Made by a program: the position numbers and the translations under genes | The notes under the pieces: model-generated | Database searches by the model: none | What the model was told of the DNA's origin: nothing | The model's input: only the letters and a program-made list of their open reading frames with translations | Shown here: positions 38,947-57,559 of the stretch, piece after piece | How positions within the stretch are numbered: the stretch's first letter is position 1 | How the letters are laid out: each line of letters starts with the position of its first letter | Assembly (NCBI RefSeq): GCF_900110025.1 | Contig: NZ_FOCE01000008.1 | Coordinates: 62,001-126,000 of the forward strand | Length of the DNA: 64,000 nucleotides | Direction: 5' to 3' | Source: Gemmobacter aquatilis | GTDB taxonomy: Bacteria; Pseudomonadota; Alphaproteobacteria; Rhodobacterales; Rhodobacteraceae

Positions 38947-38950
38947 CGGG

Positions 38951-39953: not shown

Positions 39954-40135
39954 AAGCCACTATCGGGATCTGATCTGCGCGGCATCGCAGGATGCGCACG
40001 GTGTTCAGGATTCGCCCGGCCCCCGCCCAGCCTTTTCCAACTAACAGATTTCGCATGAAAATGGAAGGGCGGGGGGAGTGGTTGCGGCGTGACAAGGCCG
40101 CTAGGATGAGGGCGAATCCGGGGCAGGAGGGGCGT

Positions 40136-41098
40136 GTGACCGAAGCGGCGAACGGGCGGATCGACGCGGTGGTCATCGGCCGCAACGAAGGGGCGCGGTT
40201 GCTGGTCTGCATCGCGTCGTTGCGGGGGCAGGTGCGGCGCGTGGTTTATGTCGATAGCGGTTCGACCGATGGCAGTGTGGCGGCGGCGGCGGCGCTGGGG
40301 GCCGAGGTGGTGGCGCTGGATCTGGCGGTGCCGTTCACCGCAGCGCGGGCGCGCAATGCCGGGCTGGACCGGCTGGCCACCGATCCACCCGATCTGGTGC
40401 AACTGGTGGATGGCGATTGCGAGGTGCAACCGGCATGGGTGGCCGAGGCGGCGGGATTTCTGGCAGCACATCCCGAGGTGGTGGTGGTCTGCGGGCGGCG
40501 GCGCGAGCGCTATCCCGAAGCCTCGGTCTATAACCGGCTGTGTGATCGGGAATGGGATACGCCGGTGGGCGCGGCAGCGGCCTGTGGCGGCGATGCGCTG
40601 ATGCGCTATGCCGCCGTGCGGGCGGTGGGCGGCTATGACCCGACGCTGATCGCGGGCGAGGAGCCGGATCTCTGTCTGCGGCTGCGGCGCGCGGGGGGCA
40701 AGATCTGGCGGCTGGAGGCCGAGATGACGCTGCACGATGCCGCCATGCGGCGCTTTGGCCAGTGGTGGCAGCGCACGCGGCGGGCGGGCCATGCCTTTGC
40801 CGAGGGGGCGCATCGCCATGGCGCGGGGCCAGAGCGGCATTGGGTGCGGGAAACCCGGCGGGCGCTGCTCTGGGGGGCGGGGGTGCCACTGGCGGCGCTG
40901 ATTGCCGGGGCGGTGCATCCGGCGGGGCTGGGGCTGCTGCTGGTCTGGCCCGCGCAGGTGCTGCGGCTGGCACCGCGTCTGGGGCTGGAGGCGGCGTTCT
41001 TTACCGTGCTGGGCAAGCTGCCCGAGGCGCAGGGGGGGATCGGCTATCATCTGGCGCGGCTGCGCGGGCAGCGGCGCGGCTTGATCGAATACAAGTGA
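40136..41098 (+). CDS. GT2 glycosyltransferase with C-terminal membrane segments
   Basis: 320 aa GT-A enzyme: nucleotide-sugar motif VVYVDSGSTDGSVAAA, metal-binding DGDCEVQPAWV, acceptor region GGYDPTLIAGEEPDLCLRL (ED motif), then QWWQRTRRAGHAF. Two hydrophobic segments follow (about 245-290). The GTG at 40136 has AGGAGG at ideal distance; earlier in-frame starts lack a ribosome site. Part of exopolysaccharide repeat-unit assembly. Confidence 0.88.
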   Translation: MTEAANGRIDAVVIGRNEGARLLVCIASLRGQVRRVVYVDSGSTDGSVAAAAALGAEVVALDLAVPFTAARARNAGLDRLATDPPDLVQLVDGDCEVQPAWVAEAAGFLAAHPEVVVVCGRRRERYPEASVYNRLCDREWDTPVGAAAACGGDALMRYAAVRAVGGYDPTLIAGEEPDLCLRLRRAGGKIWRLEAEMTLHDAAMRRFGQWWQRTRRAGHAFAEGAHRHGAGPERHWVRETRRALLWGAGVPLAALIAGAVHPAGLGLLLVWPAQVLRLAPRLGLEAAFFTVLGKLPEAQGGIGYHLARLRGQRRGLIEYK

Positions 41099-41114: not shown

Positions 41115-41873
41115 TCAGCCGCGTTGCGCCAGGGCGCGCAGCGCCTCGCCCGGCAGAAGCTTCAGGCAGGCCCAATAGCGCGGCACCAGACGGCGCGGGC
41201 TGGACAGCATCCGCCAGACCCATTCCATCGCGATGCGCTGCACCCAGTCCGGCGCGCGGTTCTGCGTGCCGGCCAGAAAATCCAAGCCCGCCCCGATCGA
41301 GGCAAAGCCGACATGCGGGGCAAGGTGGCGGCCGCGCGCGGCAAAGATTTCCTGCTTGGGGGCGCCCAGCGCGATCAGGCAGAGGCCGATGTCCGACGCC
41401 TCCATCAGCCGCAGAAAACGCGCGGCTTCTTCCCCTTCGGGGTCGAAGCCCATGGGCGGGGCGATCTGCAGCGCGATGTCCAGCCCCGGCAAGCGGCTGC
41501 GCAGCCGTTCTGCCGCCCCTTCCAGCGCCGCTTCGGTGGCGCCGAACAGGGCGACCCTGACCCCGGCCTGCGCCGCCAGCCGCGCCAGCGGCAGCACCAT
41601 TTCAGATCCGGGCACAAGGCCCACCGGCTGTCCGGCCAGACGCGACAGCCAGACGATGGGATTGCCATCCGCCACCACCAGATCCTGCGCCGCATAGGCG
41701 CGCAGGAAGGTAGGGCTGGAATGTAGCTTTACCAGATGGTCCAGATTGATCGTGGCCAGTGCGAAGCCCTGCCGATCTTGCAGCCGTACCCGCACCTCGG
41801 CCAGCAGGGCGGCGGCATGGGGCACGTTGACGGAAATCGTCGTGTCGTGAAAACGGAACTGCACGGCGGACAC
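41115..41873 (-). CDS. WecG/TagA/CpsF-family glycosyltransferase
   Basis: About 252 aa GT26. Motifs ATINLDHLVKLHSSPTF, VVADGNPIVWL, VALFGATEAALEGAAERL, CLIALGAPKQEIFAARGRH and ASIGAGLDFLAGTQNRAPDW are characteristic (Asp in the NxDH and GAPKQE regions). Such enzymes add ManNAcA, ManNAc or glucose to a lipid-linked sugar. The start is unclear: GTG at 41873 fits the family; GTG at 41960 would add 29 basic residues. Confidence 0.87.
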   Translation of the reverse strand: MSAVQFRFHDTTISVNVPHAAALLAEVRVRLQDRQGFALATINLDHLVKLHSSPTFLRAYAAQDLVVADGNPIVWLSRLAGQPVGLVPGSEMVLPLARLAAQAGVRVALFGATEAALEGAAERLRSRLPGLDIALQIAPPMGFDPEGEEAARFLRLMEASDIGLCLIALGAPKQEIFAARGRHLAPHVGFASIGAGLDFLAGTQNRAPDWVQRIAMEWVWRMLSSPRRLVPRYWACLKLLPGEALRALAQRG

Positions 41874-42036
41874 CTTACTGTTTAAGGCCTGCTGCGTAAC
41901 ACGAATTGCCGGGCAAATCAGCAAGCGCCGCCGTTTCACCCGTGACGGCGCGGTGGACACTCTGTTTCCAATCGGCGGGGTGGGTCAAGCGCAGATCGCG
42001 TTGGCCGACTCGGGCCCAAGGCGTTAGCGGTGGGGC

Positions 42037-42936
42037 ATGTCAGCGCAGGCCCGTCAGCATCGCCAGTCCATCGACCTTGCGCGCACGCTGGCGGCGTTCG
42101 GGGTGGTGGCGGTGCATATCCATGCTTCGGTCAATGATTGGTTCGGGCATGTCGCGCTGGCGCTGTTTCTGGTGCTGTCGGCCTTTCTGACGGCGCGCGC
42201 GGCAGATCGCAATGGCGGGCGGCCCGACTGGCCGGTGCGGGTGCGGCGCATCCTGCTGCCCTGGGTGTTCTGGTCGGCCGCTTATTGGCTGCTCAACGCC
42301 CTCACCGCCGAAGGGGCGAGCCTCGACGTGTTGCCGCGCGAGCCGCTGTCGTTGCTGGTCGGGGCGTCGATCCATCTGTGGTTTCTGCCTTTTGTGCTGC
42401 TGGCGGGGTTGGTGGTGCGGCCCGTGCTGGCCTTTACCCGGACGGTGCCGCGTCTGGCGCTGGCCGCGCTGGGGCTGGGGCTGGTGGGGGTGCCGCTGTT
42501 CTGGGTGCATACGGTTTTTCCCTTTGCGCCGGAGCCGCTGCCGCAATGGGCCTATGCCGTGCCGCCCTTCCTGTGCGGCGTGTTGCTGGTGCCCGCCCAC
42601 CGGATGCAGCGGATTGTGTTGCCGCTGGCCGCACTGGGGGGGCTGAACCTCGTGGCGCTGGTGATGTCGCATGGGGCACCCTGGGCCTGGACGACCCTTG
42701 CCGGGGCGCTGGCCTTCGAGACATTCTGGAACCTGCCGGTGGAACATCCGGTGTTGCCGGTGCTGGGCCGATCCTGTTTCGGGGTCTATCTGCTGCACCC
42801 GTTCTTCATGCTGGTGGGCTACAAGCTGTTCGGGACCGGGGTGCCATGGCCGCTGTTTTCGCTGCTGGTCTTTGCGCTTTCGGCCTTGACGGCCTTGGGG
42901 TTGCAGCGCCTGCCACTGATCCGGGCCGTGGTCTGA
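42037..42936 (+). CDS. Acyltransferase-3 family membrane protein
   Basis: 299 aa with about ten hydrophobic helices. N-terminal SIDLARTLAAFGVVAVHIHA is the Acyl_transf_3 signature with the catalytic His; a second family feature is LPVLGRSCFGVYLLHPFFML near the end. It would O-acetylate or otherwise acylate a glycan unit. First gene of a plus-strand run with the Wzy-like gene. Confidence 0.87.
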   Translation: MSAQARQHRQSIDLARTLAAFGVVAVHIHASVNDWFGHVALALFLVLSAFLTARAADRNGGRPDWPVRVRRILLPWVFWSAAYWLLNALTAEGASLDVLPREPLSLLVGASIHLWFLPFVLLAGLVVRPVLAFTRTVPRLALAALGLGLVGVPLFWVHTVFPFAPEPLPQWAYAVPPFLCGVLLVPAHRMQRIVLPLAALGGLNLVALVMSHGAPWAWTTLAGALAFETFWNLPVEHPVLPVLGRSCFGVYLLHPFFMLVGYKLFGTGVPWPLFSLLVFALSALTALGLQRLPLIRAVV

Positions 42937-42945
42937 CAGGGGCGT

Positions 42946-44394
42946 GTGTGTTATGACTATGATCGCGCGTGCCGCGCAAGGAGTGTCCCGCTGATCTCTG
43001 CCAACCCCCTCGCATGGTTCATGCTGGCGATCTGGCCGGTGGTCGTGATCGTGCTGTTTCAGCGCCTGCCGCCGGACAGGGCGCTGATCTGGACCATTCT
43101 GGGCGCCTATCTGGTGCTGCCGCCGGTCATCGCGCTGAATTTGCCGGTCGTTCCGGATCTGGGCAAGAATTCCATCCCGGCCTTGATGGCGCTGGCGATG
43201 GTGCTGTTTGCGCGGCACGAGAAGATCTCGTTCCTGCCGGACAGCGCGGTGGGCCGGGCGCTGATCGCGGTATTCGTGCTGTCGCCCTTTGCCACGGTGC
43301 TGACCAATGGCGAAGCGGTGCAGGCGGGGCCGACGCAGCTTCAGGGCATGGCGATCTATGACAGTGTGGCGGCCGTGGCCAATCAGGCGATTGCCGTGCT
43401 GCCCTATTTCCTTGCCCGCCGCTATCTGGGCACGGATGAGGCGATGCGCAACATGCTGCGGGCGCTGGTGGCTGGCGGGCTGGCCTATTCGCTGCCGATG
43501 CTGATCGAGCTGCGCATGTCGCCGCAGATGAACGTCTGGGTTTACGGCTTCATGCAGCATGATTTCACGCAGACGATCCGCTTTGGTGGCTACCGTCCGA
43601 TGGTGTTTCTGCCGCACGGGTTGTGGCTGGCGTTTTTCGTGCTGATGACCTCGGTTTCCGCGCTGCTGCTGTTGCGCGAGGCGCCGGTGCAGGAGCGGGG
43701 GAAGCGGCTGATGATCTGGCTGTACCTGACGGCGATGCTGGTGCTGGCCAAAAGCGCCGGGCCGCTGGTGTACGGGGTCGGGTTGTCACTGCTGATCCTG
43801 CTGGCGCCGCGCCGGATGCAGGTGCTGGTGGCGGCGGTGCTGGCGGTGATGGTCATCACCTATCCGCTGCTGCGCGGGCTGCATCTGGTGCCGCTGGATG
43901 CGATCCTGAACCTTGCCGGAAGCGCCTCGGCGGAACGGGCGGATTCGCTGCAGTTCCGCATCGAGAACGAAGAGGCGCTGCTGGCCCATGCAAGCCTGAA
44001 GCCCTGGTTCGGCTGGGGCGGCTATGGGCGCAATCTGCTGTATGATCCGGTGACGGGCGAGATGGCCTCGGTGTCGGATGGCGGCTGGATCATCGTGCTG
44101 GGGATCTATGGCTGGCTAGGCTATATCGTGCAGTTTGGCCTGCTGATCCTGCCGCTGCTGCTGCTGGCAGGGCAGGCGATGCGGCGCGGGGTGACGGTTG
44201 CGGCGCCGGTGGCGGGGGTGGCGTTGCTGCTGGCGGCCAATCTGGTGGATCTGTTGCCCAATGCGACGCTGATCCCCTTCACCTGGCTGATGGCCGGGGC
44301 GGTGCTGGGGCGGGCCGAGGCAATGGCGCGCGAACGGGCCGGCACGAGCCGGACTGCGAGGTCTGGTATTCCCCGAACGCGGACGATTCTATGA
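42946..44394 (+). CDS. O-antigen ligase/polymerase-like (Wzy/WaaL) membrane protein
   Basis: About 482 aa, eleven to twelve hydrophobic segments, with the large periplasmic loop and the ligase/polymerase-type region RIENEEALLAHASLKPWFGW followed by GGYGRNLLYDPVTGE. It most likely polymerises exopolysaccharide repeat units. Start unclear: the GTG at 42946 has CAGGGGC upstream, but a perfect AAGGAG lies seven bases before an in-frame CTG at 42991, which would remove 15 polar residues. Confidence 0.83.
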   Translation: MCYDYDRACRARSVPLISANPLAWFMLAIWPVVVIVLFQRLPPDRALIWTILGAYLVLPPVIALNLPVVPDLGKNSIPALMALAMVLFARHEKISFLPDSAVGRALIAVFVLSPFATVLTNGEAVQAGPTQLQGMAIYDSVAAVANQAIAVLPYFLARRYLGTDEAMRNMLRALVAGGLAYSLPMLIELRMSPQMNVWVYGFMQHDFTQTIRFGGYRPMVFLPHGLWLAFFVLMTSVSALLLLREAPVQERGKRLMIWLYLTAMLVLAKSAGPLVYGVGLSLLILLAPRRMQVLVAAVLAVMVITYPLLRGLHLVPLDAILNLAGSASAERADSLQFRIENEEALLAHASLKPWFGWGGYGRNLLYDPVTGEMASVSDGGWIIVLGIYGWLGYIVQFGLLILPLLLLAGQAMRRGVTVAAPVAGVALLLAANLVDLLPNATLIPFTWLMAGAVLGRAEAMARERAGTSRTARSGIPRTRTIL

Positions 44395-44952: not shown

Positions 44953-47900
44953 GTGACCATGGCTGATCAGACCCTGTTGTCGGACCCCGTGTCCGAGACC
45001 GATATTGCCATTGTCGGCATGGCGGCGCATCTACCCGGAGCCCCTTCGATTGTTGACTATTGGGAAAACCTGCGCGCCGGGATCGAAAGCATCCGCCACC
45101 TGACCGAGGCGGAACTGCTGGCCAATGGCGAAAGCCCCGCGAAGATGCGGCACCCCAATTATGTGCCCGCCGCGGCCCCGCTGGACAAGTTTGCCGAGTT
45201 CGATGCGGAGTTCTTCGGTTTCAGCCCGAAAGAGGCGGCGATCCTTGACCCGCAGCACCGCCAGTTTCTGGAGGTGGCTTGGGAGGCGCTGGAGAACGCG
45301 GCACATGTGCCCGAACGCTTCAACGGGTCCATCGGGGTTTATGCCGGCTGCGGCATGGGCAGCTATTTCTATTTCAACCTGTGTTCCAACCCCGATCTGG
45401 TGGAAAACACCGGCATGTTCTTGCTGCGGCACACCGGCAACGACAAGGATTTCCTGTCCACCCGGGTAAGCCATATCTTCGACCTCAAGGGGCCGAGCAT
45501 CAATATCCAGACCGCCTGTTCCACATCATTGGTGGCGGTGCATTTCGCGTCGCAGGCGCTGCTGAACGGCGAATGTGATATGGCGCTGGCGGGCGGGGTG
45601 ACCATCGAGTTGCCGCAGGGCCGGGGCTATGTGTTCAACGAGGGCGAGATCCTGTCGCCCGACGGGCATTGCCATGCCTTCGATCACCGCGCGCAGGGCA
45701 CGGTGTTCGGGTCTGGCGCGGGCTGTGTGGTGCTGCGCCGCGCGGTGGATGCGATCCGCGACGGCGATCACATCTGGGCGATCATCAAGGGCAGCGCCAT
45801 CAACAATGACGGCGCGGCGAAGGCGGGCTATCTGGCGCCTTCGGTCGATGGGCAGGCGCGCTGCATCGCCGAGGCGCAGGCAATTGCCGGGGTGCCTTCG
45901 GACACGGTGGATTATGTGGAATGTCACGGCACCGGCACCTTTCTGGGCGACCCGATCGAGGTGGCGGCGCTGACCGCAGGCTTCCGCGAAAGCGCCGACA
46001 GCGTGGGGACATGCAGGATCGGTTCGGTGAAAACCAATATCGGGCATCTGGATACGGCGGCGGGGGTGGCGAGCCTGATCAAGGTGGCGCTGCAACTGCA
46101 TCACCGGGAAATGGCGCCCTCGCTGGGATACGAGGCGCCGAACCCGGCGATTGATTTTGAAACCTCGCCCTTCAAGGTGAATGACCGGCTGACTGCGTGG
46201 GAGGCGAAGGCCCACCCGCGCCGCGCCGGGGTGAACAGTCTCGGCGTCGGGGGCACAAATGCACACGCCGTACTGCAGGAGGCGCCCGTTCGCGGCGCCT
46301 CCGACGAAAGTGACTGGCCGTTTCAGCCGCTGGTGATTTCGGCCAGATCGAAAGGCGCGCTGGACGATGCGGCGCGCAATCTTGCGGCGCATCTGCGGGC
46401 GCATCCGGAACAGAAGCTGGCCGATGTGGCCTGGACGCTGAAAGAGGGCCGCCGGGCGTTTGAAAAGCGCCGGGTGCTGGTGGCCGGCAGTCCCGACGAG
46501 GCGGCGGACCTGCTGGAGGGCAAGGACGCGCGGCGCGTGTTCAGCCATGACCATCTGGGCGACAACCCCGAGGTGGTGTTCATGTTCCCCGGTGGCGGCG
46601 CGCAATATGCGGGCATGGCGCGCGGGCTGTATGACACCGAGCCGGAGTTCCGCGACTGGATGGACAAGGGTCTGGCGATCCTGCAGCCCAAGCTGGATTA
46701 CGACATCCGCGCGCTGTGGCTGCCCGAACCGGGGCAAGAGGCGGCGGCGGATGCCCGGTTGAAGCGGCCTTCGGTGCAACTGCCGCTGATCCTGATCACC
46801 GAATATGCGCTGGCGAAGCTGTATCAAAGCTGGGGCGTGACGCCTGCGGCGCTGATCGGGCACAGCATGGGGGAAAATACCGCTGCCTGTCTGGCCGGGG
46901 TGATGAGCTTTGAGGATTGCATCGGGCTGGTGCATCTGCGCGGGCAATTGTTCGATACCGTGCCGCCGGGCGGGATGCTGTCTGTGCCGCTGGCCGAGGC
47001 CGATCTGCGCCCGCGCCTGACCGGCGATCTGGATATGGCCAGCGTGAACGCGCCGGGGCTGTGTGTGGTGTCCGGTTCCGATGCGGCACTGGCGGCGCTG
47101 GCGGCAGGGTTGGCGGCGGAAGGGGTGGAGACGCAGCGCATCGCCATCGACATCGCGGCGCATAGCCGGATGCTGGAGCCTATCCTGGGGCGGTTTGGCG
47201 AATATCTGCGCGCGATCCGGCTGCACGCGCCGCAGATCCCGATCATTTCCAACCGCACGGGGTTGCCGCTGTCGGCTGATCTGGCGCGCAGCCCGGAATA
47301 TTGGGTGCAGCATCTGCGCAATACCGTGCTGTTCCAGCAGGGGCTGGCGCAACTGACCGCAACGCCGGGGCGTGTCTACATGGAAATGGGGCCGGGGCGG
47401 GCGCTGTCCTCGCTGGCGCAGGCCAATGGGGTTGCGGCGGGGCAGGTAATCCCGGCGCTGCGCCACCCGGAACAGAAGATCTCCGATGACCAATGGCATA
47501 TCGCCAGCATCGCCCGGCTTTGGGCTTGCGGTGTGGCGGTGGATTGGGAGCCGATCTGGGGCGGCGCGCGGCGCTTGCGGCTGCCGCTGCCGGGCTATGC
47601 CTTCCAGCGCAAACCCTATTTCATCGAACCGGGCAAGGCTGGGGTGGTGGAGGCCGAGGCGCTGCCGATGCGCCTTGCCGATGTGGCAGACTGGGGCTGG
47701 CAGCCGGTCTGGCGCCAGCACGCGGCGGCGGTGGAGTTTGATGAACCCGCCGAGGCGCCAAAGCATAGCTGGCTGGTGTTCGTTGATGAGGCGGGGCTGG
47801 GCGCGCAGGTCGTGGCGCAGTTGCGTGCGGCAGGGCAATCGGTGGTCACGGTGCGGGCGGGCGATGCCTATGCGCGCGATGGTGAAGGCGGGTTCATCCT

Positions 47901-50900
47901 GAACCCCGAACGCGGGCGCGAGGGCTATGACGCGTTGATCCGCGATCTGGTGGCGGCGGGCCGCGCGCCGGACCGGATCGCGCATTTCTGGCTGGTGACG
48001 GCGCGCGAAAGCTTCCGCCCGGGGTCCAGCTTCTTTCACCGCAATATCGAGCAGGGCTTTTATGCGCTGATGTTCCTGGGCCAGGCGATGGCCGAGGAAA
48101 ACCTGCCCCGGCCGATCCATCTGTCGGTGGTGACGACGGGGGCGGCGCAGCTGAAGGACGAGGGTCTGCCCTACCCGGAAAAGGCCGCGATTGCCGGGCC
48201 GGCCAAGGTGATGCCGCATGAGCTGCCGGGGGTGAGTTGCGCCACGCTGGACGTGCAGCTTCCCGCCGCGCCGAAGGGGCGCTGGGCCAAGGCCGACCCG
48301 CAGGCGATGGCGGTGCTGGCCGGGCAGGTGGTGGAGGATCTGCTGGCCGCGCCCTCCAGCCACGCGGCGCTGCGCCGGGGCGAAAAACGCTATGAACGGG
48401 CGTTGAAGCGGCTGGCGCTGCCCGAGGCGGCGATGGGCCTGCCGGAGGGTGCGCCGGTGCTGATCACCGGCGGGTTTGGTGGCATCGGGCTGACGCTGGC
48501 CGAAAAGCTGGCGGTGGAGGCGCGGGCCAAGATCGTGCTGATCGCCCGCAGCGCCCTGCCCGCGCGGGCGGATTGGCCGCAGCATCTGGCGCAGGGCGAT
48601 GCGGTGGCACGGCGGATTCTGGCGGTGCAGCGGCTGGAAAGTCTGGGCGCCGAGGTGCTGGTGGCGCGGGCCGACGTGTGCAACGCCGAAGAGATGCGCG
48701 CGGCGGTGGCCGAGGCCGAGGGGCGGTTTGGCCCGCTGCGCGCGGTGATCCATGCGGCGGGCGTGGTGGATGACGCGCCGCTGCTGGCCAAGACCCCGGC
48801 GCAGGTGGAAGGCGTCTTTGCGCCGAAACTGCACGGCACGCATGTGCTGGATGCGCTTTTCCCCGATGGGCGCCTTGATCTGCTGGTGCTGTTTTCCTCC
48901 ACCTCGACCGTCACGGGGCCGGTGGGGCAGGTGGATTATGTGGCGGCGAATGAATACCTCAACGCCTATGCGCAGGGGCGGCGGGGCGGCAAGACGCGGG
49001 TTCTGGCGCTGAACTGGGGCATCTGGGCCGATGTCGGCATGGCGGCCGAGGCACTGGCCGAACGCACCGGCGCCAGACCGCTGGCGCCGCGCGTGCCGGT
49101 GAAGCGCCCGCTGCTGGACGAGGCCGGGTATGACCGGGCGGGCAACCGCATCTTCGCCACGCGGCTGACGACCGAGCGCTGGATATTGGACGGGCACCGC
49201 ACCAAGGGTGGCACGGCGCTGATCCCCGGCACCGGCTATCTGGAGATGGCCGCCGAGGTGGCGCGGGAAGAGGGCTTTGGTGCCTTCGAGTTGCGCGACC
49301 TGACCTTCTTCCGCGCGCTGGACGTGGCCGATGGCGCCAGCCGCGAGATGCGGGTCAAACTGCTGCGGTCCGATGAGGGCTTTGGCTTCGAGGTGCGGTC
49401 TGGCGTGGACCATCGCGGGCGCACCGGCTTTGCGCTGAATGCGCAGGGGCGGCTGATGCCGTTGCGCGCCAAGCCGGGGCAGATTGATCCGGCGGCGATT
49501 GCGGCGCGCTGTGGCGTGGCGCGCGAGGATATTCGCGGCTTGCGCTCGCCGCAGGAGGAGCATCTGAACTTCGGGCCGCGCTGGCGGGTGCTGCACCGGA
49601 TGGCGCTGGGGCAGGGCGAGGGCATCGCCTCGCTGACCCTGCCGCTGGCGGCGCAGCCCGATCTGGCGCAGGGCTGGCTGCTGCATCCGGCGCTGATGGA
49701 TCTGGCGACGGGTTGGGCGATGGAGCTGATTTCCGGCTATCAGCCGACGCATCTGTGGGTGCCGGTCAGCTATGCCCGGTTGCGCGCCCATGCGCCGCTG
49801 CCGGCGCGGGTGATCAGTTGGGTGCGCAATGCGGCGGTGAACCGGGGCGAAGGGCCGGTGGCGGTGTTCGACGTGACGCTGGCCACCGAGACCGGCGAAG
49901 TGCTGGTGGAGATTGAAGGCTTCACGATCCGCAAGCTGGAGGGGGCCTTTGCGACGAAAGCGCCCGAGTTGCGCGATCTGGAATTTGACGATGCGCAGGC
50001 GCAGAAAGCCGCCTCGCCGCAAGAGGAACGGCTGATCCACAACCTTGGCCAAGGCATCCGCGCCGCCGAGGGGGCCGATGCCTTTGCCCGCGCGCTGGCC
50101 ACCGGGCAGGCGCAGGTGATCGTGTCGTCGCTGGATCTGCCGGCGCTGGTCCGTCAGGCCGATGCGGTGGAGGCCGAGCGGCCCGAGGGGCAAAGTTTCG
50201 CGCGTCCCGATCTCGACAGCGCCTATATCGAGCCGCGCAATGACATCGAACGCACGCTGACCGGCTTCTGGCAGGAACTGCTGGGGGTGGGGCAGGTCGG
50301 GGTGGAGGATGACTTCTTCGCGCTGGGCGGCCATAGCCTGATCGCGGTGCGGCTGTTTTCCATGGTGCGCAAGGCGTTCCGGGTGGATTTCCCGATCTCG
50401 GTCCTGTTCGAAGCACCGACGATTGCCGCCTGTGCGGCGTTGATCGAGGAACGCATCGGGCCGCAGGATGGCACTGCGCCGAAGGCAGAGGCCCCAACGC
50501 GCCGCTTCACCCATCTGGTGGCTATGCACGAAGGGGCAGGGGGGCCGAAGCAGCCGTTCTTCCTTGTGGCGGGCATGTTCGGCAATGTGCTGAACCTGCG
50601 GCATCTGGCGCAGCTTCTGGGCGGGGACCGGCCGTTCTACGGGATGCAGGCACGCGGGCTTTACGGCGATGCCGAACCGCACCGCACCTTGCCCGAGGCC
50701 GCGCGCGATTACATCGCCGAGTTGCGGCAGGTGCAGCCGCAGGGGCCCTATCTGCTGGGCGGTTTTTCGGGCGGCGGGTTGACCGCCTGGGAAATGGCGC
50801 GGCAGTTGGAGGCGGCGGGGGAACAGGTTTCGCTGCTGGTGCTGCTGGATACGCCCTTGCCGATGCGCCCGCCGCTGTCGCGTCTGGACAAGGCGCTGAT

Positions 50901-51354
50901 CAAGGCGGCCGAGATGAAGGCGCGCGGGCCGGGCTTCGTGGCCGATTGGGCCAGGCGCCGCGTGGCATGGGAGATCGAGAAGCGCCGCCCGAAACAGGCG
51001 ACCGACACCGCGCATCAGTTCCACAATACCGAGATCGAGGCCGCGTTCCGCGCCGCTTTGCCGATCTATGCCTTGCCGCTGCGCAAGGGGCCGACGGCGC
51101 TGTTCCGCCCGCCGCTGGATCGGCGCTGGGCGGTGTCGAACGGGCAATGGGTGTCTGCCGCGCGGGAATATGTGTTCCCCGACAATGACCTGACCCGCTT
51201 TGCCCCGGCCTTGCAGGTGGTCGAGGTGCCGGGCGACCATGACAGCATGGTGCTGGAGCCGAATGTGCGGGTTCTGGCGGCGCGGTTGCGCGAGGCCATT
51301 GCCGGTGCAGAGGAAAAGCCGCCAGCCCCGACGCTGCGCGAGGCGGCGGAGTGA
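44953..51354 (+). CDS. Type I polyketide synthase, one module: KS-AT-KR-DH-ACP-TE
   Basis: 2133 aa. Ketosynthase (about 15-430) with Cys189 (TACSTSL), His325 (ECHGTGT) and His365 (NIGHLD). Acyltransferase (about 520-810) with Ser638 in GHSMGEN. Ketoreductase (structural half from about 910, GGFGGIG at 1173, Tyr1329 and Asn1333). Dehydratase (about 1385-1680) with His1415 (DGHRTKGG) and Asp1583 (HPALMD). ACP Ser1795 (GGHSL). Thioesterase Ser1939 (GFSGGG). All catalytic residues are present, so it should extend an acyl group once, reduce and dehydrate it, and release the product. The KR precedes the DH, the reverse of textbook order. GTG at 44953 is favoured by GAGG; ATG at 44959 is possible. 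Overlaps the GT2 gene. Confidence 0.95.
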   Translation: MTMADQTLLSDPVSETDIAIVGMAAHLPGAPSIVDYWENLRAGIESIRHLTEAELLANGESPAKMRHPNYVPAAAPLDKFAEFDAEFFGFSPKEAAILDPQHRQFLEVAWEALENAAHVPERFNGSIGVYAGCGMGSYFYFNLCSNPDLVENTGMFLLRHTGNDKDFLSTRVSHIFDLKGPSINIQTACSTSLVAVHFASQALLNGECDMALAGGVTIELPQGRGYVFNEGEILSPDGHCHAFDHRAQGTVFGSGAGCVVLRRAVDAIRDGDHIWAIIKGSAINNDGAAKAGYLAPSVDGQARCIAEAQAIAGVPSDTVDYVECHGTGTFLGDPIEVAALTAGFRESADSVGTCRIGSVKTNIGHLDTAAGVASLIKVALQLHHREMAPSLGYEAPNPAIDFETSPFKVNDRLTAWEAKAHPRRAGVNSLGVGGTNAHAVLQEAPVRGASDESDWPFQPLVISARSKGALDDAARNLAAHLRAHPEQKLADVAWTLKEGRRAFEKRRVLVAGSPDEAADLLEGKDARRVFSHDHLGDNPEVVFMFPGGGAQYAGMARGLYDTEPEFRDWMDKGLAILQPKLDYDIRALWLPEPGQEAAADARLKRPSVQLPLILITEYALAKLYQSWGVTPAALIGHSMGENTAACLAGVMSFEDCIGLVHLRGQLFDTVPPGGMLSVPLAEADLRPRLTGDLDMASVNAPGLCVVSGSDAALAALAAGLAAEGVETQRIAIDIAAHSRMLEPILGRFGEYLRAIRLHAPQIPIISNRTGLPLSADLARSPEYWVQHLRNTVLFQQGLAQLTATPGRVYMEMGPGRALSSLAQANGVAAGQVIPALRHPEQKISDDQWHIASIARLWACGVAVDWEPIWGGARRLRLPLPGYAFQRKPYFIEPGKAGVVEAEALPMRLADVADWGWQPVWRQHAAAVEFDEPAEAPKHSWLVFVDEAGLGAQVVAQLRAAGQSVVTVRAGDAYARDGEGGFILNPERGREGYDALIRDLVAAGRAPDRIAHFWLVTARESFRPGSSFFHRNIEQGFYALMFLGQAMAEENLPRPIHLSVVTTGAAQLKDEGLPYPEKAAIAGPAKVMPHELPGVSCATLDVQLPAAPKGRWAKADPQAMAVLAGQVVEDLLAAPSSHAALRRGEKRYERALKRLALPEAAMGLPEGAPVLITGGFGGIGLTLAEKLAVEARAKIVLIARSALPARADWPQHLAQGDAVARRILAVQRLESLGAEVLVARADVCNAEEMRAAVAEAEGRFGPLRAVIHAAGVVDDAPLLAKTPAQVEGVFAPKLHGTHVLDALFPDGRLDLLVLFSSTSTVTGPVGQVDYVAANEYLNAYAQGRRGGKTRVLALNWGIWADVGMAAEALAERTGARPLAPRVPVKRPLLDEAGYDRAGNRIFATRLTTERWILDGHRTKGGTALIPGTGYLEMAAEVAREEGFGAFELRDLTFFRALDVADGASREMRVKLLRSDEGFGFEVRSGVDHRGRTGFALNAQGRLMPLRAKPGQIDPAAIAARCGVAREDIRGLRSPQEEHLNFGPRWRVLHRMALGQGEGIASLTLPLAAQPDLAQGWLLHPALMDLATGWAMELISGYQPTHLWVPVSYARLRAHAPLPARVISWVRNAAVNRGEGPVAVFDVTLATETGEVLVEIEGFTIRKLEGAFATKAPELRDLEFDDAQAQKAASPQEERLIHNLGQGIRAAEGADAFARALATGQAQVIVSSLDLPALVRQADAVEAERPEGQSFARPDLDSAYIEPRNDIERTLTGFWQELLGVGQVGVEDDFFALGGHSLIAVRLFSMVRKAFRVDFPISVLFEAPTIAACAALIEERIGPQDGTAPKAEAPTRRFTHLVAMHEGAGGPKQPFFLVAGMFGNVLNLRHLAQLLGGDRPFYGMQARGLYGDAEPHRTLPEAARDYIAELRQVQPQGPYLLGGFSGGGLTAWEMARQLEAAGEQVSLLVLLDTPLPMRPPLSRLDKALIKAAEMKARGPGFVADWARRRVAWEIEKRRPKQATDTAHQFHNTEIEAAFRAALPIYALPLRKGPTALFRPPLDRRWAVSNGQWVSAAREYVFPDNDLTRFAPALQVVEVPGDHDSMVLEPNVRVLAARLREAIAGAEEKPPAPTLREAAE

Positions 51355-52358
51355 TGGCGCAGGTTCTGACCGTCATCCTCAACTGGCGCACCGCGCCGAT
51401 GACCCTGCAAGCGACCGAGGCGGCGTTGCGGGCGATGCAGGGGATGGCGGGCGCGATCACCATCGTGGACAACGACTCGGGCGATGGCAGTTTCGAGGCG
51501 CTGGTCGCCGAGGTTGCGGCGCGCGGTTGGGATCGCGGGGCGGTGCCGGTGCGGGTGCTGCAATCGGGCTGGAACGGCGGTTTTGGCGCGGGCAACAATG
51601 TCGGCATCCGTGCCGGATTGCCGGGGGGCGCGCGGCCCGATTACGTCTATATCCTCAATTCCGATGCCTTTCCGGCACCTGGCGCCATTCGTGCGCTGCT
51701 GGACCATCTGCAGGCGCATCCCGACACCGGCTTTGCGGGCAGCTATATCCATGGCGAGGATGGGGTGGCCCATCGCACCGCCTTTCGCTTTCCCTCCATC
51801 GCGTCGGAACTGGAGGGGGCGGCGCGCACCGGCCCGGTGTCGCGGTTGCTGCGCGCGCATATCGTGGCGCTGCCGATCCCGCAGACCACCACGCGGGTGG
51901 ATTGGCTGGCGGGTGCCAGCCTGATGATGCGGCAGGATGTGCTGGACCGGATCGGATTGTTTGACGAAACCTTCTTTCTGTATTTCGAGGAAACCGATCT
52001 GTGCCTGCGTGCCGCGCGGGCGGGCTTTCCCACCGATTACGTCCGCGAATCGGAGGTGATGCATATCGGTTCGGTGTCCACCGGCATGAAGACATGGCGC
52101 CGTATTCCTGCCTTCTGGCTGGACAGCCGCAGCCATTATTTCACCAAGAATTACGGGCATCTCTATGCCGCAGCTGCCACGCTGGCCCATGTGGCCGGGG
52201 GAGTCTTGTGGCGGGTGCGGCGTTTCGTCCAGCGGCGGGATCACCTTGATCCACCGCATTTCCTGCGCGATCTGATCGTGCATTCTGTGACGCGGGCGGG
52301 GCGGCAACAGCGGGCGGGGGCACCCTCGCCCAAGGATATGGCCCGCCCCGCGGCATAG
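51354..52358 (+). CDS. GT2 glycosyltransferase within PKS-NRPS operon
   Basis: 334 aa. GT2 motifs: VILNWRTAPMTLQATEA, IVDNDSGDGSFEALV, NGGFGAGNNVGIRAG, YVYILNSDAFPAPGAIRA, and DETFFLYFEETDLCLRAARA. The group includes rhamnosyl- and related transferases of surface glycans. The ATG overlaps the PKS stop by 1 nt (TGATG), so the two are translated together. One hydrophobic stretch near the C-terminus (LYAAAATLAHVAGGVLW). It may glycosylate the PKS-NRPS product or a lipid carrier. Confidence 0.9.
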   Translation: MAQVLTVILNWRTAPMTLQATEAALRAMQGMAGAITIVDNDSGDGSFEALVAEVAARGWDRGAVPVRVLQSGWNGGFGAGNNVGIRAGLPGGARPDYVYILNSDAFPAPGAIRALLDHLQAHPDTGFAGSYIHGEDGVAHRTAFRFPSIASELEGAARTGPVSRLLRAHIVALPIPQTTTRVDWLAGASLMMRQDVLDRIGLFDETFFLYFEETDLCLRAARAGFPTDYVRESEVMHIGSVSTGMKTWRRIPAFWLDSRSHYFTKNYGHLYAAAATLAHVAGGVLWRVRRFVQRRDHLDPPHFLRDLIVHSVTRAGRQQRAGAPSPKDMARPAA

Positions 52359-52395: not shown

Positions 52396-55300
52396 ATGAA
52401 CCCGTTTTCCTGTTACCTGATCGGCAATGAAAGCCTGACCCGCGAATGTGGCGAGATGCTGCTGGCGCGCGGCCATGCCATCGCGGCGCTGATCACGCGC
52501 AACCCGGATGTCCGGGCCTGGGGGCAGGCAAAGGGCCTGAGCGTGCTGGCGCAGGATCGGGGATGGGACGCGGCGCTGCCGGGGCAGGTGGATTGGTTGC
52601 TGTCGATCGCCAACCTGTCGCTGGTGCCCGAAGCCGCGCTGGCTTTGGCGCGGCAGGGCGGGGTGAACTTCCATGACGGGCCGTTGCCGCGCCATGCCGG
52701 GCTGAATGCGCCGGTCTGGGCCATTCTGGCGCAGGAACCGCAGCATGGCATCACCTGGCACATGATCACCGCAGGGGTGGACGAGGGCGAAATCCTTGAT
52801 CAGCGGCTGTTCCCGGTGCTGCCGAGTGATACCGCGCTGACGCTGAACACCCGGTGTTTTGAAGCGGCGATTGACAGTTTCCCGGCCTTGATCGAGGCGC
52901 TGGCCCTGGGCGCGCCGCACCGCCGGGCACAGGATTTCACGCAACGCACGGTTCATACGCGGGCGGATCGGCCTGCGGCGGCGGGGCGGCTGGATTTCAC
53001 CCGGACGGCGGCAGAGGTCGCGGCGCTGGTGCGCGCGCTGGATCATGGCACCTATTGGAACCCGCTGACCTGCGCCAAACTGTGGGATGGCGGGCGCTAT
53101 GTCGTGGTGGGCGGGGCGGAGGTTGTGGCCGGTGCAGGCGTGCCGGGGCAGGTGCTGGCCGCCACAGAAGATGACGTGACGGTGGCTTGCGGCGCGGGGG
53201 CGGTGCGGCTGACGCGGCTGACCTGCCAGAAGGGGTTTCCGGTTTCGGGCCTGTCGCTGCCCAACCCGCTGGCCTCGGCCAGCCCGGCAGAGGCTGCGGC
53301 GCTGACGGCGGCGCTGGCGCGGGTGGCGCCGCAGGAACCGGCGCAGCGCAAGGCCTTGCTGGCGCTGGACCCGGCAGAGGTTGCGGGCGCTGCGGCGGCC
53401 ACTGCCCCGGCCTTCTGGCAAAGCGTGCCGGTGGCGCTGCCCTCGCTGGCGCTGGGGGCCTTGGCGGCGGTGCGGCTGTCGGGCAAGCCGGTGGCCGATC
53501 TGGCCTTTGGCGCGGCTCATGCGGCCGAAGGCATCCTGTCGGACTGGGTGCCGCTGCGCGTGGCGGCAGAAGGCGCGCTGCCCGAGGCGCTGGCCCGGGT
53601 GACGACGGCGCTGGACGCTGCTGCCGCGCATCCGGGGTTTGCGCTGGATCTGCTGGCGCGGGATCGCAAGCTGTTCGGCCTGCAACCGCCCGCCTTCGGG
53701 CTGGGCCTTGCGCCGGTGCCCGGCACGGTGGTCACGCTGGCCCCCGATGCGCTGCACTACGATGCCAGCCGGTTGACCGCCGCGCAGGCCGAGGCGATGG
53801 CGGCCCGCATCGCCGCCTTTGCCGCAGCGGCGCAGGGGGATGCGCGGGTGGAAACCCTGCCGGTTCTGACGCCCGCGGAACTGGACGAGGTGCTGTATCA
53901 GCACAACCGCACCGCCACCCCCTATGACGCCAGCCTGTGCGTGCATCAGGCGTTCGAGGCGCAGGTGGCGCGCAGCCCCGATGCGGTGGCCGTGGTGTTC
54001 GAGGGCGAAAGCCTGACCTATGCGCAGCTCAATGCCCGCGCCAACCGGGCGGCGCAGGTGCTGATCGGCATGGGGGTGCGGCCCGGCACGCTGGTCGGCC
54101 TGCATCTGCGCCGGTCGCTGAACCTGCTGATCGGGGCGCTGGCGATCCAGAAGGCGGGCGGGGCTTATGTGCCGATGGACCCGGCCTATCCCGCCGACCG
54201 CACGGCGCTGTATATCGAAGACAGCGCCTGCCCGGTGATCGTGACGCAGGCGGCGCTGGAACCGGCGCTGCCCGCGCATCAGGCGCAGGTGCTGTGCCTT
54301 GATACCGACGGGCGGCTGGGGCTGGCGGATGCGGCGAACCCGGCTTCGGGCGTTACCTCTGCCGATCTGGCCTATATGATCTACACCTCCGGCTCTACCG
54401 GGCGGCCCAAGGGGGTGATGGTCGAACATCGCAACGTCGCCAACTTCTTTGCCGGGATGGATGGGCGGATCGACCATGCCTCGGGCTCTGTCTGGCTGGC
54501 CGTCACCTCGCTGTCCTTCGACATTTCGGTGCTGGAGCTGTTCTGGACGCTGGCGCGCGGGTTCAAGCTGGTGCTAACCTCGGATGAAAACCGGGCGCTG
54601 GTGTCGAATGGCACCATCGCCTCGGCGCAGGGGATGGAGTTTTCGCTGTATTACTGGGGCAATGACGATGGCGTCGGCCCGAAGAAATACGAGTTGCTGC
54701 TGAACGGTGCCCGCTTTGCCGATGAGCATGGGTTCTGCGCCGTCTGGACACCGGAACGCCATTTCCACGCCTTTGGCGGCCCCTATCCGAACCCGAGCGT
54801 GACCGGCGCGGCGGTGGCGGCGGTGACGAAGAATATCGGCGTGCGGGCCGGGTCTGTCGTGCTGCCGTTGCACCATCCGGCGCGGGTGGCCGAGGATTGG
54901 GCGGTGATCGACAACCTGACCAACGGGCGGGCCGGGCTGGCGATTGCCAGCGGCTGGCAGCCCGATGATTTCGTGCTGCGGCCCGAGAATACCCCGCCGA
55001 ACAACCGCGCCGCGATGTTCGACGGCATCGCCCAGTTGCGCCGCCTGTGGCGGGGCGAGGCGGTGGAGTTTCCGACGAAAACCGGCACATTCGGCGTGGT
55101 GACGCAACCGCGCCCGGTGTCGCAGGATCTGCCGATCTGGGTGACCACCGCCGGCAACCCCGCCACATGGCGCGAGGCGGGCGAGATTGGCGCGAATGTG
55201 CTGACCCACCTTCTGGGCCAGAGCATTGACGAGGTGGCGGGCAAGATCGCCATCTATCACGACGCGCTGCGCAAGGCGGGGCATGATCCGGCGCAGTTCA

Positions 55301-56943
55301 AGGTGACGCTGATGCTGCACACCTATGTCTGCCGCGACCGCGAACAGGCCCGGCGCGTGGCGGAAAAGCCGATGAAGGATTACCTCGCCGCCGCCGTGGG
55401 GTTGGTGAAGCAGTATGCCTGGGCCTTCCCGGCGTTCAAGAAACCGCAGGGCATTGAAAACCCGATGGATATCGACCTGCGCACCCTGTCGGCGGAAGAA
55501 AACGAGGCGATCCTCGATTTCGCCTTCCAGCGGTATTTCGAGGATTCCGGCCTGTTCGGCACGGTGGAAGACGCGCTGGCGCGGGTGGAAAGCCTGAAGC
55601 GCATCGGGGTGACCGAAGTCGCCTGCCTGATCGACTATGGTATCGCCCCCGAAGCGGTGATGGAGGGGCTTTATCCGCTGGCCGAGGTGCTGCGCCGCGC
55701 CAATGCCGGGGCGGGGCCTGCCGCCGACGATTACTCGATCGCGGCGCAGATCATCCGCCATAAGGTGACGCATCTGCAATGCACGCCCTCGATGGCGCGG
55801 ATGATCATGCTGAATGACGAGGCGCAGATGGCGCTGGCCGGGGTGAAAACCCTGATGCTGGGCGGCGAGGCGCTGCCGGGGGCCTTTGTCAGCGATCTGC
55901 GCCGGGTGACGCAGGCGAAGATCGAAAACATGTATGGGCCGACCGAAACCACGATCTGGTCCACCACGGAAACCGCGCAGGGTGGCGAAGGGGTGGTGAA
56001 TATCGGCACGCCCATCGCCAACACGCAGCTTTATGTGCTGGACGACCGGCAACAGCCGGTGCCGCCCGGCACGGCGGGCGAGTTGTGGATCGGCGGCGAT
56101 GGCGTGACGCGCGGCTATTGGCAGCGGCCTGATCTGACGGCGGAACGCTTTCTGCCCGACCCGTTCATCCGCGAAAATGCCTGCGTCTGGGGCGCGCGGA
56201 TGTATCGGACCGGCGATCTGGTGCGGCTGCGCGCCGATGGCAAGCTCGATTACCTCGGGCGGGCGGATTATCAGGTGAAGCTGCGCGGTTACCGGATCGA
56301 GCTGGGCGAGATCGAAAGCACGCTGGAGGCGCAGCCGGGGGTGTCTCAGGCCGTGGTTCTGGCGCGCGAGGATCAGCCGGGCGATCTGCGGCTGGTGGCC
56401 TATGTCACCGGCACGGCCAGTGCCGAGACGCTGAAACCCGCGCTGGCGGCGCTGTTGCCCGATCATATGATCCCGGCACATTTTGTGCGGCTGGACAGTT
56501 TCCCGCTGACCCCCAACCGCAAGGTGGACCGCAAGGCGCTGCCCGCGCCGCAGGCACAGGTGGAACAGGCCGCCCATGTCGCGCCCGAAGCCGGGTTGGA
56601 GGCGCAGATCGCCGCGATCTGGCAAAAGGTGCTGGGCGTGCCCAAGGTGGGGGCGAAGGACAATTTCTTTGCGCTGGGGGGCCATTCGCTGCTGGCGGTG
56701 CAGGCGCATCGTGAATTGCGCGACGGGCTGGGGCTGACCAAGCTGTCGATCACCGACATCTTCCGCTTTCCCACGCTGTCGGCGCTGGCCGCGCATCTGG
56801 AGGGGGCACCGAAGCCTGCGACGCCTGCGGCGGCCCCGGCCAATACCGCAGCACAGCCGCAAGGGCTGGCTGATCGGGCCGAGGCGCGGGCGGATGCCAT
56901 GGCGCGGCGGCGTGCCTTGCGCGGTGGCCGGGTGGATGGCTGA
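52396..56943 (+). CDS. NRPS: formyltransferase, adenylation domain with luciferase-like monooxygenase insert, PCP
   Basis: 1515 aa. Residues 1-290: formyltransferase fold with Asn91, His93 and Asp129 (NFHDGPLPRHAG, AGVDEGEIL). Residues 290-505: remnant like the end of a condensation domain, without an HHxxxDG motif. Adenylation part 1 from about 510 (YTSGSTGRPKG at 663-673, FDISVLELF). At about 740-1110 a luciferase-like FMN monooxygenase is inserted (VWTPERHFHAFGGPYPNPSV, AGSVVLPLHHPARVAEDW), the MupA/Atu3671-type family. Adenylation part 2 about 1112-1400 (MYGPTETTIW, YRTGDLVRLR, Lys1376 in NRKVDRKALP). PCP Ser1431. No condensation or TE domain, so it looks like a loading module. GGAAGGAG precedes the ATG. 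Confidence 0.93.
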   Translation: MNPFSCYLIGNESLTRECGEMLLARGHAIAALITRNPDVRAWGQAKGLSVLAQDRGWDAALPGQVDWLLSIANLSLVPEAALALARQGGVNFHDGPLPRHAGLNAPVWAILAQEPQHGITWHMITAGVDEGEILDQRLFPVLPSDTALTLNTRCFEAAIDSFPALIEALALGAPHRRAQDFTQRTVHTRADRPAAAGRLDFTRTAAEVAALVRALDHGTYWNPLTCAKLWDGGRYVVVGGAEVVAGAGVPGQVLAATEDDVTVACGAGAVRLTRLTCQKGFPVSGLSLPNPLASASPAEAAALTAALARVAPQEPAQRKALLALDPAEVAGAAAATAPAFWQSVPVALPSLALGALAAVRLSGKPVADLAFGAAHAAEGILSDWVPLRVAAEGALPEALARVTTALDAAAAHPGFALDLLARDRKLFGLQPPAFGLGLAPVPGTVVTLAPDALHYDASRLTAAQAEAMAARIAAFAAAAQGDARVETLPVLTPAELDEVLYQHNRTATPYDASLCVHQAFEAQVARSPDAVAVVFEGESLTYAQLNARANRAAQVLIGMGVRPGTLVGLHLRRSLNLLIGALAIQKAGGAYVPMDPAYPADRTALYIEDSACPVIVTQAALEPALPAHQAQVLCLDTDGRLGLADAANPASGVTSADLAYMIYTSGSTGRPKGVMVEHRNVANFFAGMDGRIDHASGSVWLAVTSLSFDISVLELFWTLARGFKLVLTSDENRALVSNGTIASAQGMEFSLYYWGNDDGVGPKKYELLLNGARFADEHGFCAVWTPERHFHAFGGPYPNPSVTGAAVAAVTKNIGVRAGSVVLPLHHPARVAEDWAVIDNLTNGRAGLAIASGWQPDDFVLRPENTPPNNRAAMFDGIAQLRRLWRGEAVEFPTKTGTFGVVTQPRPVSQDLPIWVTTAGNPATWREAGEIGANVLTHLLGQSIDEVAGKIAIYHDALRKAGHDPAQFKVTLMLHTYVCRDREQARRVAEKPMKDYLAAAVGLVKQYAWAFPAFKKPQGIENPMDIDLRTLSAEENEAILDFAFQRYFEDSGLFGTVEDALARVESLKRIGVTEVACLIDYGIAPEAVMEGLYPLAEVLRRANAGAGPAADDYSIAAQIIRHKVTHLQCTPSMARMIMLNDEAQMALAGVKTLMLGGEALPGAFVSDLRRVTQAKIENMYGPTETTIWSTTETAQGGEGVVNIGTPIANTQLYVLDDRQQPVPPGTAGELWIGGDGVTRGYWQRPDLTAERFLPDPFIRENACVWGARMYRTGDLVRLRADGKLDYLGRADYQVKLRGYRIELGEIESTLEAQPGVSQAVVLAREDQPGDLRLVAYVTGTASAETLKPALAALLPDHMIPAHFVRLDSFPLTPNRKVDRKALPAPQAQVEQAAHVAPEAGLEAQIAAIWQKVLGVPKVGAKDNFFALGGHSLLAVQAHRELRDGLGLTKLSITDIFRFPTLSALAAHLEGAPKPATPAAAPANTAAQPQGLADRAEARADAMARRRALRGGRVDG

Positions 56944-57559
56944 TCTGACGGCCTTGCAGGCGGCGGCGCGCGGGCTGTTGCCGCCCGGCTGCGGCGTGGG
57001 CGTGGCCGATCCGGGGATGCCGCGCCCGGGCTTTCCGGGCGAGGAGATTGCCGCCGTCGCCACGCGTCTGGCCGAGTTTCGCGCCGGGCGTGTGGCGGCA
57101 CGGCTGGCCATGGCCGAACTGGGCTTGCCGCCAGTGCCGGTGCCGATGCAGCGCGACCGCGCGCCGCTGTGGCCGATGGGGCTGTGCGGCTCGATCAGCC
57201 ATAGCGGCACGCTCTGCCTTGCGGCGGTGGCGCGGCACCCGTTGCGCGGGTTGGGGTTGGATCTGGAGCCTGCCACGCCGCTGGACGATGACCTGCGCGA
57301 CATCGTGTTGCGCCCGGAAGAACGCAGTGTGGCGCCCGATCTGGCCAAGCTGATCTTTTGCGCCAAGGAAGCGGCCTACAAGGCGCAATATCCGATCTCG
57401 CGCCGCCTGTTCGATTTTCAGGCGCTGGCGGTGCAGATCGAGGGCGGGCAGTTCACCGCCACCTTTGCCGAGGATATTCCGCCCTTCCCGCGCGGCACGC
57501 AGTTGCAGGGCCGCCATGCCCAGGTGGACGGGCATTTCCTCTGCACTGTCACGCTCTGA
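56936..57559 (+). CDS. 4'-phosphopantetheinyl transferase, EntD/Sfp type
   Basis: 207 aa. Motifs LCGSISHSG, LGLDLEPATPL (Mg-binding Asp and Glu) and FCAKEAAYKAQYP define the EntD-like family. It converts apo-ACP/PCP to the holo form with CoA, as needed by the PKS and NRPS upstream. The ATG at 56936 overlaps the NRPS end by 8 nt. It closes the operon. Confidence 0.92.
   Translation: MADLTALQAAARGLLPPGCGVGVADPGMPRPGFPGEEIAAVATRLAEFRAGRVAARLAMAELGLPPVPVPMQRDRAPLWPMGLCGSISHSGTLCLAAVARHPLRGLGLDLEPATPLDDDLRDIVLRPEERSVAPDLAKLIFCAKEAAYKAQYPISRRLFDFQALAVQIEGGQFTATFAEDIPPFPRGTQLQGRHAQVDGHFLCTVTL

What the first reader, a model, noticed from the sequence alone, without database searches (positions are those of the whole stretch)
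52396..56943. Adenylation domain interrupted by a luciferase-like monooxygenase and fronted by a formyltransferase
Seen: formyltransferase triad Asn91-His93-Asp129; adenylation motifs before residue 735 and after 1112; about 370 residues of flavin monooxygenase between them; PCP; no HHxxxDG and no TE. The monooxygenase belongs to the MupA/Atu3671 type that is known inserted in adenylation domains. Combining it with an N-terminal formyltransferase in a stand-alone protein suggests that N-formylation and oxidation occur on the tethered amino acid. The code positions near D235-I236-L239 do not match a substrate I know.
Basis: partly seen in the sequence, partly recalled or inferred. Interest (0 to 1): 0.75.

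Follow-up and report, generated by a model that had tools for sequence, protein, structure and literature searches.

The report
Formylglycine starter module in polysaccharide locus

Summary
ORF 52396-56943(+) is formyltransferase (FT), adenylation domain split between motifs A4 and A5 by a MupA/Atu3671-type luciferase-like monooxygenase (LLM), and carrier protein (PCP). (1) The specificity code reads DILQMGMIWK, a glycine-type code. (2) About 215 residues between FT and A look like the C-terminal half of a condensation domain. (3) The protein is not stand-alone: it sits in an operon PKS (KS-AT-KR-DH-ACP-TE), GT2, NRPS, PPTase. (4) The operon is conserved in the 80 Rhodobacterales loci examined, and 79 of 80 have exopolysaccharide genes within 10 kb. 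In a second clade (Methylobacterium, Aliiroseovarius) the same FT-A(LLM)-PCP lies directly before a PKS without those genes. Deinococcus has FT as a separate gene beside A(LLM)-PCP and a PKS. Best reading: an initiation module makes N-formylglycyl-S-PCP, the LLM hydroxylates its alpha carbon (as in myxothiazol, melithiazol and solanimycin B), and the PKS extends it to a short unsaturated acid, perhaps used on the exopolysaccharide. The chemistry is inferred. Each half is known; the fusion and its polysaccharide setting are, as far as I could search, undescribed.

The parts
52396..53265 (+). Formyltransferase domain (residues 1-290), triad N91-H93-D129
   Evidence: Pfam PF00551/PF02911; model Z 27.1 to ArnA FT 2bln; triad invariant 85/85
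53266..53910 (+). Linker (residues 291-505) resembling the C-terminal half of a condensation domain
   Evidence: hhalign probability 91%, E 1e-6, 213 columns, to the C-terminal lobe of C domains; no PDB sequence match; poorly conserved, 35% mean identity
53911..54600 (+). Adenylation domain, N-terminal part (residues 506-735, through A4 FDISVLE)
   Evidence: Pfam PF00501 520-733
54631..55710 (+). Inserted luciferase-like monooxygenase, MupA/Atu3671 type (residues 746-1105)
   Evidence: TIGR04020 473 bits; PuwE 6ket E 2.9e-105
55729..56565 (+). Adenylation domain, C-terminal part (residues 1112-1390); with the N part gives code DILQMGMIWK
56593..56805 (+). Carrier protein (PCP), phosphopantetheine Ser1431
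   Evidence: PF00550; Ser conserved
56806..56940 (+). C-terminal tail with RR-x-[ML]-R motif, possible docking element towards the PKS
   Evidence: motif near the C-terminus in 77 of 85 sequences; docking is inference
44953..51354 (+). Type I PKS KS-AT-KR-DH-ACP-TE (2133 aa)
   Evidence: Pfam; KS, AT, KR, DH, ACP and TE catalytic residues invariant in 77 sequences
51351..52358 (+). GT2 glycosyltransferase, weakly rhamnosyltransferase-like, between PKS and NRPS
   Evidence: PF13641/PF00535, TIGR01556 and TIGR03965 below cut-off; present in 79/80 loci
56894..57559 (+). 4'-phosphopantetheinyl transferase overlapping the NRPS 3' end (true start may be further downstream)
   Evidence: PF17837/PF01648; 70/80 loci
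42946..44394 (+). Wzy-like polymerase / O-antigen ligase family protein of the exopolysaccharide locus
   Evidence: PF04932 weak, 25.0 bits, below cut-off; relatives in 33/80 loci
42037..42936 (+). Acyltransferase 3 family
   Evidence: PF01757; relatives in 5/80 loci
41115..41960 (-). WecG/TagA/CpsF (EpsA-like) glycosyltransferase
39992..41098 (+). GT2 glycosyltransferase
   Evidence: PF00535; relatives in 59/80 loci
37666..38991 (-). Wzz-type chain length determinant
   Evidence: PF02706, TIGR03007 below cut-off; relatives in 51/80 loci
36860..37582 (+). Bacterial sugar transferase (priming)
   Evidence: PF02397
34713..36083 (+). Wzx flippase
   Evidence: PF13440; the only above-cut-off PF13440 match in the genome
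33436..34692 (-). GT4 glycosyltransferase (EpsE-like)

Best explanation
This is a loading (initiation) module for a hybrid NRPS-PKS. The A domain activates glycine and loads it on the PCP. The N-terminal FT formylates the amine from 10-formyl-tetrahydrofolate. The LLM inserted in the A domain, using FMNH2 and O2, hydroxylates the alpha carbon of the N-formylglycyl thioester. The starter passes to the KS of the partner PKS, is extended with malonate (probably once), reduced (KR) and dehydrated (DH), and released or transferred by the TE: a 4-formamido-4-hydroxy-but-2-enoyl unit or a derivative. In Rhodobacterales and rhizobia the product is possibly used in or on the exopolysaccharide encoded next door. 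Shown here: domain order, intact catalytic residues, glycine-type code, conservation, gene context. Inferred: that each domain is active, order of reactions, site of oxidation, single extension, destination of the product.
For: Domains and models. Catalytic residues invariant in NRPS and PKS. Code DILQ[MFLY]GMIWK in 83 of 85, one-residue variants in the other two; other A(LLM) proteins, with a C domain or with FT, read mostly DILQ-type codes, and two Streptomyces read DMVQLGMVWK. Literature: MOx domains sit in glycine-recruiting A domains of myxothiazol/melithiazol and hydroxylate C-alpha (PMC11342130); there the insert lies between a4 and a5, as here, and solanimycin B keeps an alpha-hydroxyglycine (PMC10204066); the PuwE monooxygenase is assigned to a 3-amino-2-hydroxy-acyl chain (PMC4219810). 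NRPS-to-PKS order: no C or TE on the NRPS, TE on the PKS; NRPS gene directly before the PKS in L113, L116, L132, L133; in Deinococcus L128 a separate FT gene, then A(LLM)-PCP, then PKS. Exopolysaccharide context: 79/80 loci have at least one and 75/80 at least two such genes, while this genome has one above-cut-off Wzx, about 18 kb from the NRPS.
Against: No product or mutant is known. The glycine code is compared with a code recalled from the literature, not with a predictor run here (one search found no paper with the string). The second clade (L113, L116, L132, L133) has no relatives of the window's exopolysaccharide genes nearby, so that link is not part of the core chemistry; and proximity does not prove the product goes onto the polysaccharide. 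The PKS could work iteratively. The AT carries AAHS, not the HAFH-type motif I associate with malonyl specificity.
Confidence: 0.6

Rival explanations
1. Hydroxylation is followed by cleavage, as in myxothiazol/melithiazol: N-formyl-alpha-hydroxyglycyl-S-PCP falls apart to formamide and glyoxylyl-S-PCP, so formylation is a throw-away cap and the PKS is primed with a two-carbon glyoxylyl starter, giving a 4-oxo-butenoyl (aldehyde) product.
For: Same a4/a5 insertion site and glycine-type code as the cleaving myxothiazol/melithiazol MOx modules described in PMC10204066 and PMC11342130.
Against: Solanimycin B keeps the hydroxyglycine. FT is present in every full-length homologue, which is costly if the formyl group is always lost.
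Confidence: 0.2
2. The LLM oxidises nitrogen: the product contains N-formyl-N-hydroxyglycine, a metal-binding hydroxamate.
For: The oxidation site is not shown by sequence; formyl hydroxamates are known siderophore groups (own knowledge).
Against: All precedents found for this LLM type in assembly lines act on carbon; the conserved neighbours are exopolysaccharide genes.
Confidence: 0.08
3. The module works without the PKS: it makes a formylated, oxidised aminoacyl-PCP that another enzyme (for example the GT2 or an acyltransferase) transfers directly to a sugar.
For: In Rhodobacterales the PKS gene lies upstream and is separated from the NRPS by the GT2 gene.
Against: PKS present in 78/80 loci and directly after the NRPS in the other clade; PKS catalytic residues invariant.
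Confidence: 0.07
4. One of the extra domains (FT or LLM) is a fossil without activity.
For: FT is less conserved (54%) than the LLM (77%).
Against: FT triad invariant 85/85 and LLM the most conserved segment; Deinococcus keeps FT as a separate gene.
Confidence: 0.05

Closest known systems
LgrA initiation module (linear gramicidin), FT-A-PCP
   Same: N-terminal folate-type FT fused to A and PCP at the start of an assembly line; best-scoring PDB protein overall
   Different: No LLM insert; feeds a condensation domain, not a KS; no half-C-like segment of about 215 residues between FT and A
MOx-interrupted glycine A domains of myxothiazol and melithiazol
   Same: Monooxygenase inserted between a4 and a5 of a glycine A domain (PMC10204066, PMC11342130)
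   Different: Those modules act on an upstream chain and end with its release as an amide; here the module initiates and FT would supply the N-acyl group
PuwE monooxygenase domain (puwainaphycin; PDB 6ket)
   Same: Closest solved relative of the LLM, E 2.9e-105
   Different: Lies between PKS and NRPS modules and is assigned to act on a 3-amino-acyl chain, not inside an A domain (PMC4219810)
FT-A(Gly)-PCP starters of oxazolomycin/conglobatin (own knowledge)
   Same: N-formylglycine starter handed to a PKS
   Different: There the formylglycine becomes an oxazole; I know of no LLM in those A domains
Hybrid NRPS-like/T1PKS cluster of Rhodobacteraceae (PMC10584327)
   Same: NRPS of 4527 nt and T1PKS of 6333 nt with room for one gene between; this cluster type found in 18 of 37 genomes; probably this operon, judging from sizes and layout
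   Different: Reported only as an orphan class; FT, luciferase-like domain and exopolysaccharide context are not mentioned

Membership tests
FT-A-PCP initiation module | Formyltransferase domain with N-H-D triad fused N-terminal to A-PCP | tested here: met
FT-A-PCP initiation module | No functional condensation domain upstream of A | tested here: met
   no Pfam Condensation match; only a half-C-like remnant
FT-A-PCP initiation module | Formylates the loaded aminoacyl group | not testable with these tools
   needs in vitro assay
MOx-interrupted A domain (myxothiazol/melithiazol type) | LLM inserted between A4 and A5 | tested here: met
   FDIS at 708, LLM 749-1098, A resumes at 1114
MOx-interrupted A domain (myxothiazol/melithiazol type) | Glycine specificity | tested here: inconclusive
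   code DILQMGMIWK matches the glycine code I recall, but no predictor or assay was run and the literature string search was empty
MOx-interrupted A domain (myxothiazol/melithiazol type) | Terminal module that releases an amide | tested here: not met
   initiation-type module without C domain or TE on this protein, paired with a PKS
TIGR04020 MupA/Atu3671 LLM | Score above curated cut-off | tested here: met
   473 vs 244.45 bits
TIGR04020 MupA/Atu3671 LLM | Flavin binding and oxygenase activity | not testable with these tools
   homology to the PuwE structure only
Oxazole-forming FT-A(Gly)-PCP systems | Cyclodehydratase making the oxazole | not tested
   no dedicated search

The most novel reading that the evidence does not exclude
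A conserved FT-A(LLM)-PCP/PKS assembly line of Rhodobacterales and rhizobia that makes a reactive formamido-hydroxy-crotonyl (or aldehyde) group dedicated to decorating an exopolysaccharide, which would link modular NRPS-PKS chemistry to surface polysaccharide assembly.
Probability: 0.35. Interest if true: 0.8.

Novelty: new variant of a known kind. Interest (0 to 1): 0.55.

Why it matters
It predicts a defined starter unit (N-formyl-alpha-hydroxyglycine) for a common orphan hybrid cluster of Rhodobacterales, an abundant marine bacterial group, and ties it to an exopolysaccharide locus. That makes the product and its role directly testable with one knockout and one in vitro assay. If the product ends up on the polysaccharide, modular NRPS-PKS lines would have a role in surface chemistry.

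Tried and rejected
Unknown substrate: rejected after reading the code in 85 sequences. Stand-alone enzyme: rejected by operon conservation. tblastn against plasmids at E 1e-100 seemed to show homologues without FT; that came from the E-value limit, FT is there in those re-read. A full C domain between FT and A: no Pfam match, only a half-C-like profile match; phmmer of that segment found nothing in the PDB, and VIA-align on the FT+linker model tested mainly residues 1-291, so the half-C reading rests on hhalign with a small template set of five C domains. Literature: no paper holds LLM, adenylation domain and formyltransferase together; none holds the string DILQLGLIWK; the 2020 review of interrupted A domains is not held; other roseobacter papers gave only general PKS/NRPS mentions or nothing. 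Several '+' ORFs in the polysaccharide region (for example 37648-39330, 33370-34716) are shadows of '-' strand genes; early counts that used 33370-34716 are superseded. LLM tree: the FT label needs two changes, so a single origin of the fusion is neither shown nor excluded. A first regular expression for the C-terminal tail motif was wrong and was corrected.

Full report
Observation. The ORF at 52396-56943(+) exists as described. HMM libraries place FT (64-284), a split A domain, the LLM (749-1098) and a PCP (1404-1468). The A domain is interrupted between motif A4 (FDIS at 708) and A5; the two halves reassemble in the AlphaFold model into one A domain (GrsA 1amu Z 51.8, rmsd 2.1, 496 residues). 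The FT part models with mean pLDDT 94.7 and matches the ArnA FT, including a folate-bound structure (2bln, Z 27.1, rmsd 2.5, 280 residues). The LLM is a close relative of the PuwE monooxygenase (6ket, E 2.9e-105).

The ten-residue code reads DILQMGMIWK; across 85 sequences it is DILQMGMIWK 55, DILQFGMIWK 11, DILQLGMIWK 10, DILQYGMIWK 7, DILQMGMVWK 1 and DILQAGMIWK 1. From my own knowledge the glycine code is DILQLGLIWK; I could not find that string in the paper library. Of the other A(LLM) proteins sampled, most read DILQ-type codes; two Streptomyces proteins read DMVQLGMVWK. Residues 291-505 are poorly conserved (35% mean identity) but align by profile with the C-terminal lobe of condensation domains (hhalign probability 91%, E 1e-6); I read them as a half-C remnant, with moderate confidence.

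Operon and context. Upstream lie a PKS (KS-AT-KR-DH-ACP-TE) and a GT2; downstream a PPTase. In 80 Rhodobacterales loci the set is conserved: PKS 78, GT2 79, NRPS 80, PPTase 70 (some loci end at contig edges). The search that gave them kept the best 80 of 109 relatives, so more exist. PKS catalytic residues are invariant in 77 sequences. Within about 10 kb, 79 of 80 loci have at least one and 75 at least two relatives of the window's exopolysaccharide genes (Wzx 51, Wzz 51, GT2 59, GT4 44, WecG 35, Wzy 33). This genome has one above-cut-off Wzx gene, about 18 kb from the NRPS. Plasmid homologues in Ruegeria, Paracoccus, Aminobacter and Rhizobium show the same FT-A(LLM)-PCP with PKS, PPTase and polysaccharide genes.

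A second clade. In Methylobacterium (L113), Aliiroseovarius (L116) and two further alphaproteobacterial genomes (L132, L133) the same FT-A(LLM)-PCP lies directly before a PKS, without relatives of the window's exopolysaccharide genes in the stretches read. In Aliiroseovarius the partner is one protein with KS, AT, KR, DH, carrier, C, A, carrier and TE domains. In a Deinococcus plasmid (L128) an FT is a separate gene next to A(LLM)-PCP and a PKS. This supports FT, A(LLM) and PKS acting together, in the order NRPS then PKS. The LLM tree puts the FT-bearing rows in two groups and does not settle whether the fusion arose once.

Mechanism. Literature places this kind of MOx in glycine-recruiting A domains and assigns C-alpha hydroxylation: myxothiazol and melithiazol (inserted a4/a5, followed by cleavage to an amide and a glyoxylyl thioester) and solanimycin B (a8/a9, hydroxyglycine retained) (PMC11342130; PMC10204066). 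In those cases the glycine is N-acylated by the growing chain; here, in the first module, FT would supply the N-acyl group. I therefore propose: glycine loading, N-formylation, C-alpha hydroxylation, transfer to the KS, one malonyl extension, KR and DH, TE release. The hydroxylation site, retention of the hydroxyl, single extension and the fate of the product are inferences. The main rival is cleavage to a glyoxylyl starter.

Known and new. Each half is known (LgrA-type FT-A-PCP; MOx-interrupted glycine A domains). I found no description of the combination, in a library that lacks most subscription journals. A 2023 survey lists what is probably this operon only as an orphan NRPS-like/T1PKS hybrid in 18 of 37 genomes (PMC10584327), and the Phaeobacter inhibens genome paper lists a PKS and an NRPS one gene number apart (Inhi_1972, Inhi_1974; PMC4062626), which may be the same operon. 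I file it as a new variant of a known kind, interest 0.55, higher if the polysaccharide link is proven.

Noticed in passing
L128:1785-2696 (+), Deinococcus actinosclerus plasmid: Stand-alone FT gene beside A(LLM)-PCP and PKS, with a FemAB/GNAT-like gene and a polysaccharide biosynthesis gene nearby: a trans version of the fusion in another phylum.
   Followed up: partly
L116:12956-22201 (+), Aliiroseovarius sp. M344 plasmid: The same starter module is followed by a PKS-NRPS with an extra C-A-PCP module and TE, so the formylglycine starter may also lead to a peptide-containing product.
   Followed up: partly
L114:11846-12367 and L127:7855-8376, Streptomyces plasmids: Flavin reductase gene directly after a C-A(LLM)-PCP-TE gene, a likely FMNH2 supplier; none is annotated next to the Rhodobacterales operons whose annotation I read.
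   Followed up: no
L134 and L136 (genomes of about 1.5 Mb, same family f107): Small alphaproteobacterial genomes with long PKS genes that carry an LLM of the same family outside an A domain.
   Followed up: no
L027 (G010:C27:12415-13458): A same-genus genome carries a second LLM above the TIGR04020 cut-off in a 431-aa frame, in addition to the NRPS copy.
   Followed up: no
L112:15564-16350: In Ruegeria sp. SCSIO 43209 the PPTase position holds only a 234-nt gene followed by a transposase: the PPTase looks truncated.
   Followed up: no
window 44953-51354, PKS residues 735-738: The AT has AAHS (nearly invariant in 77 sequences) where I would expect a HAFH-type malonyl motif; extender specificity should be checked.
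   Followed up: partly
window 24901-25680 (-): Sulfotransferase family gene about 8 kb from the polysaccharide locus.
   Followed up: no
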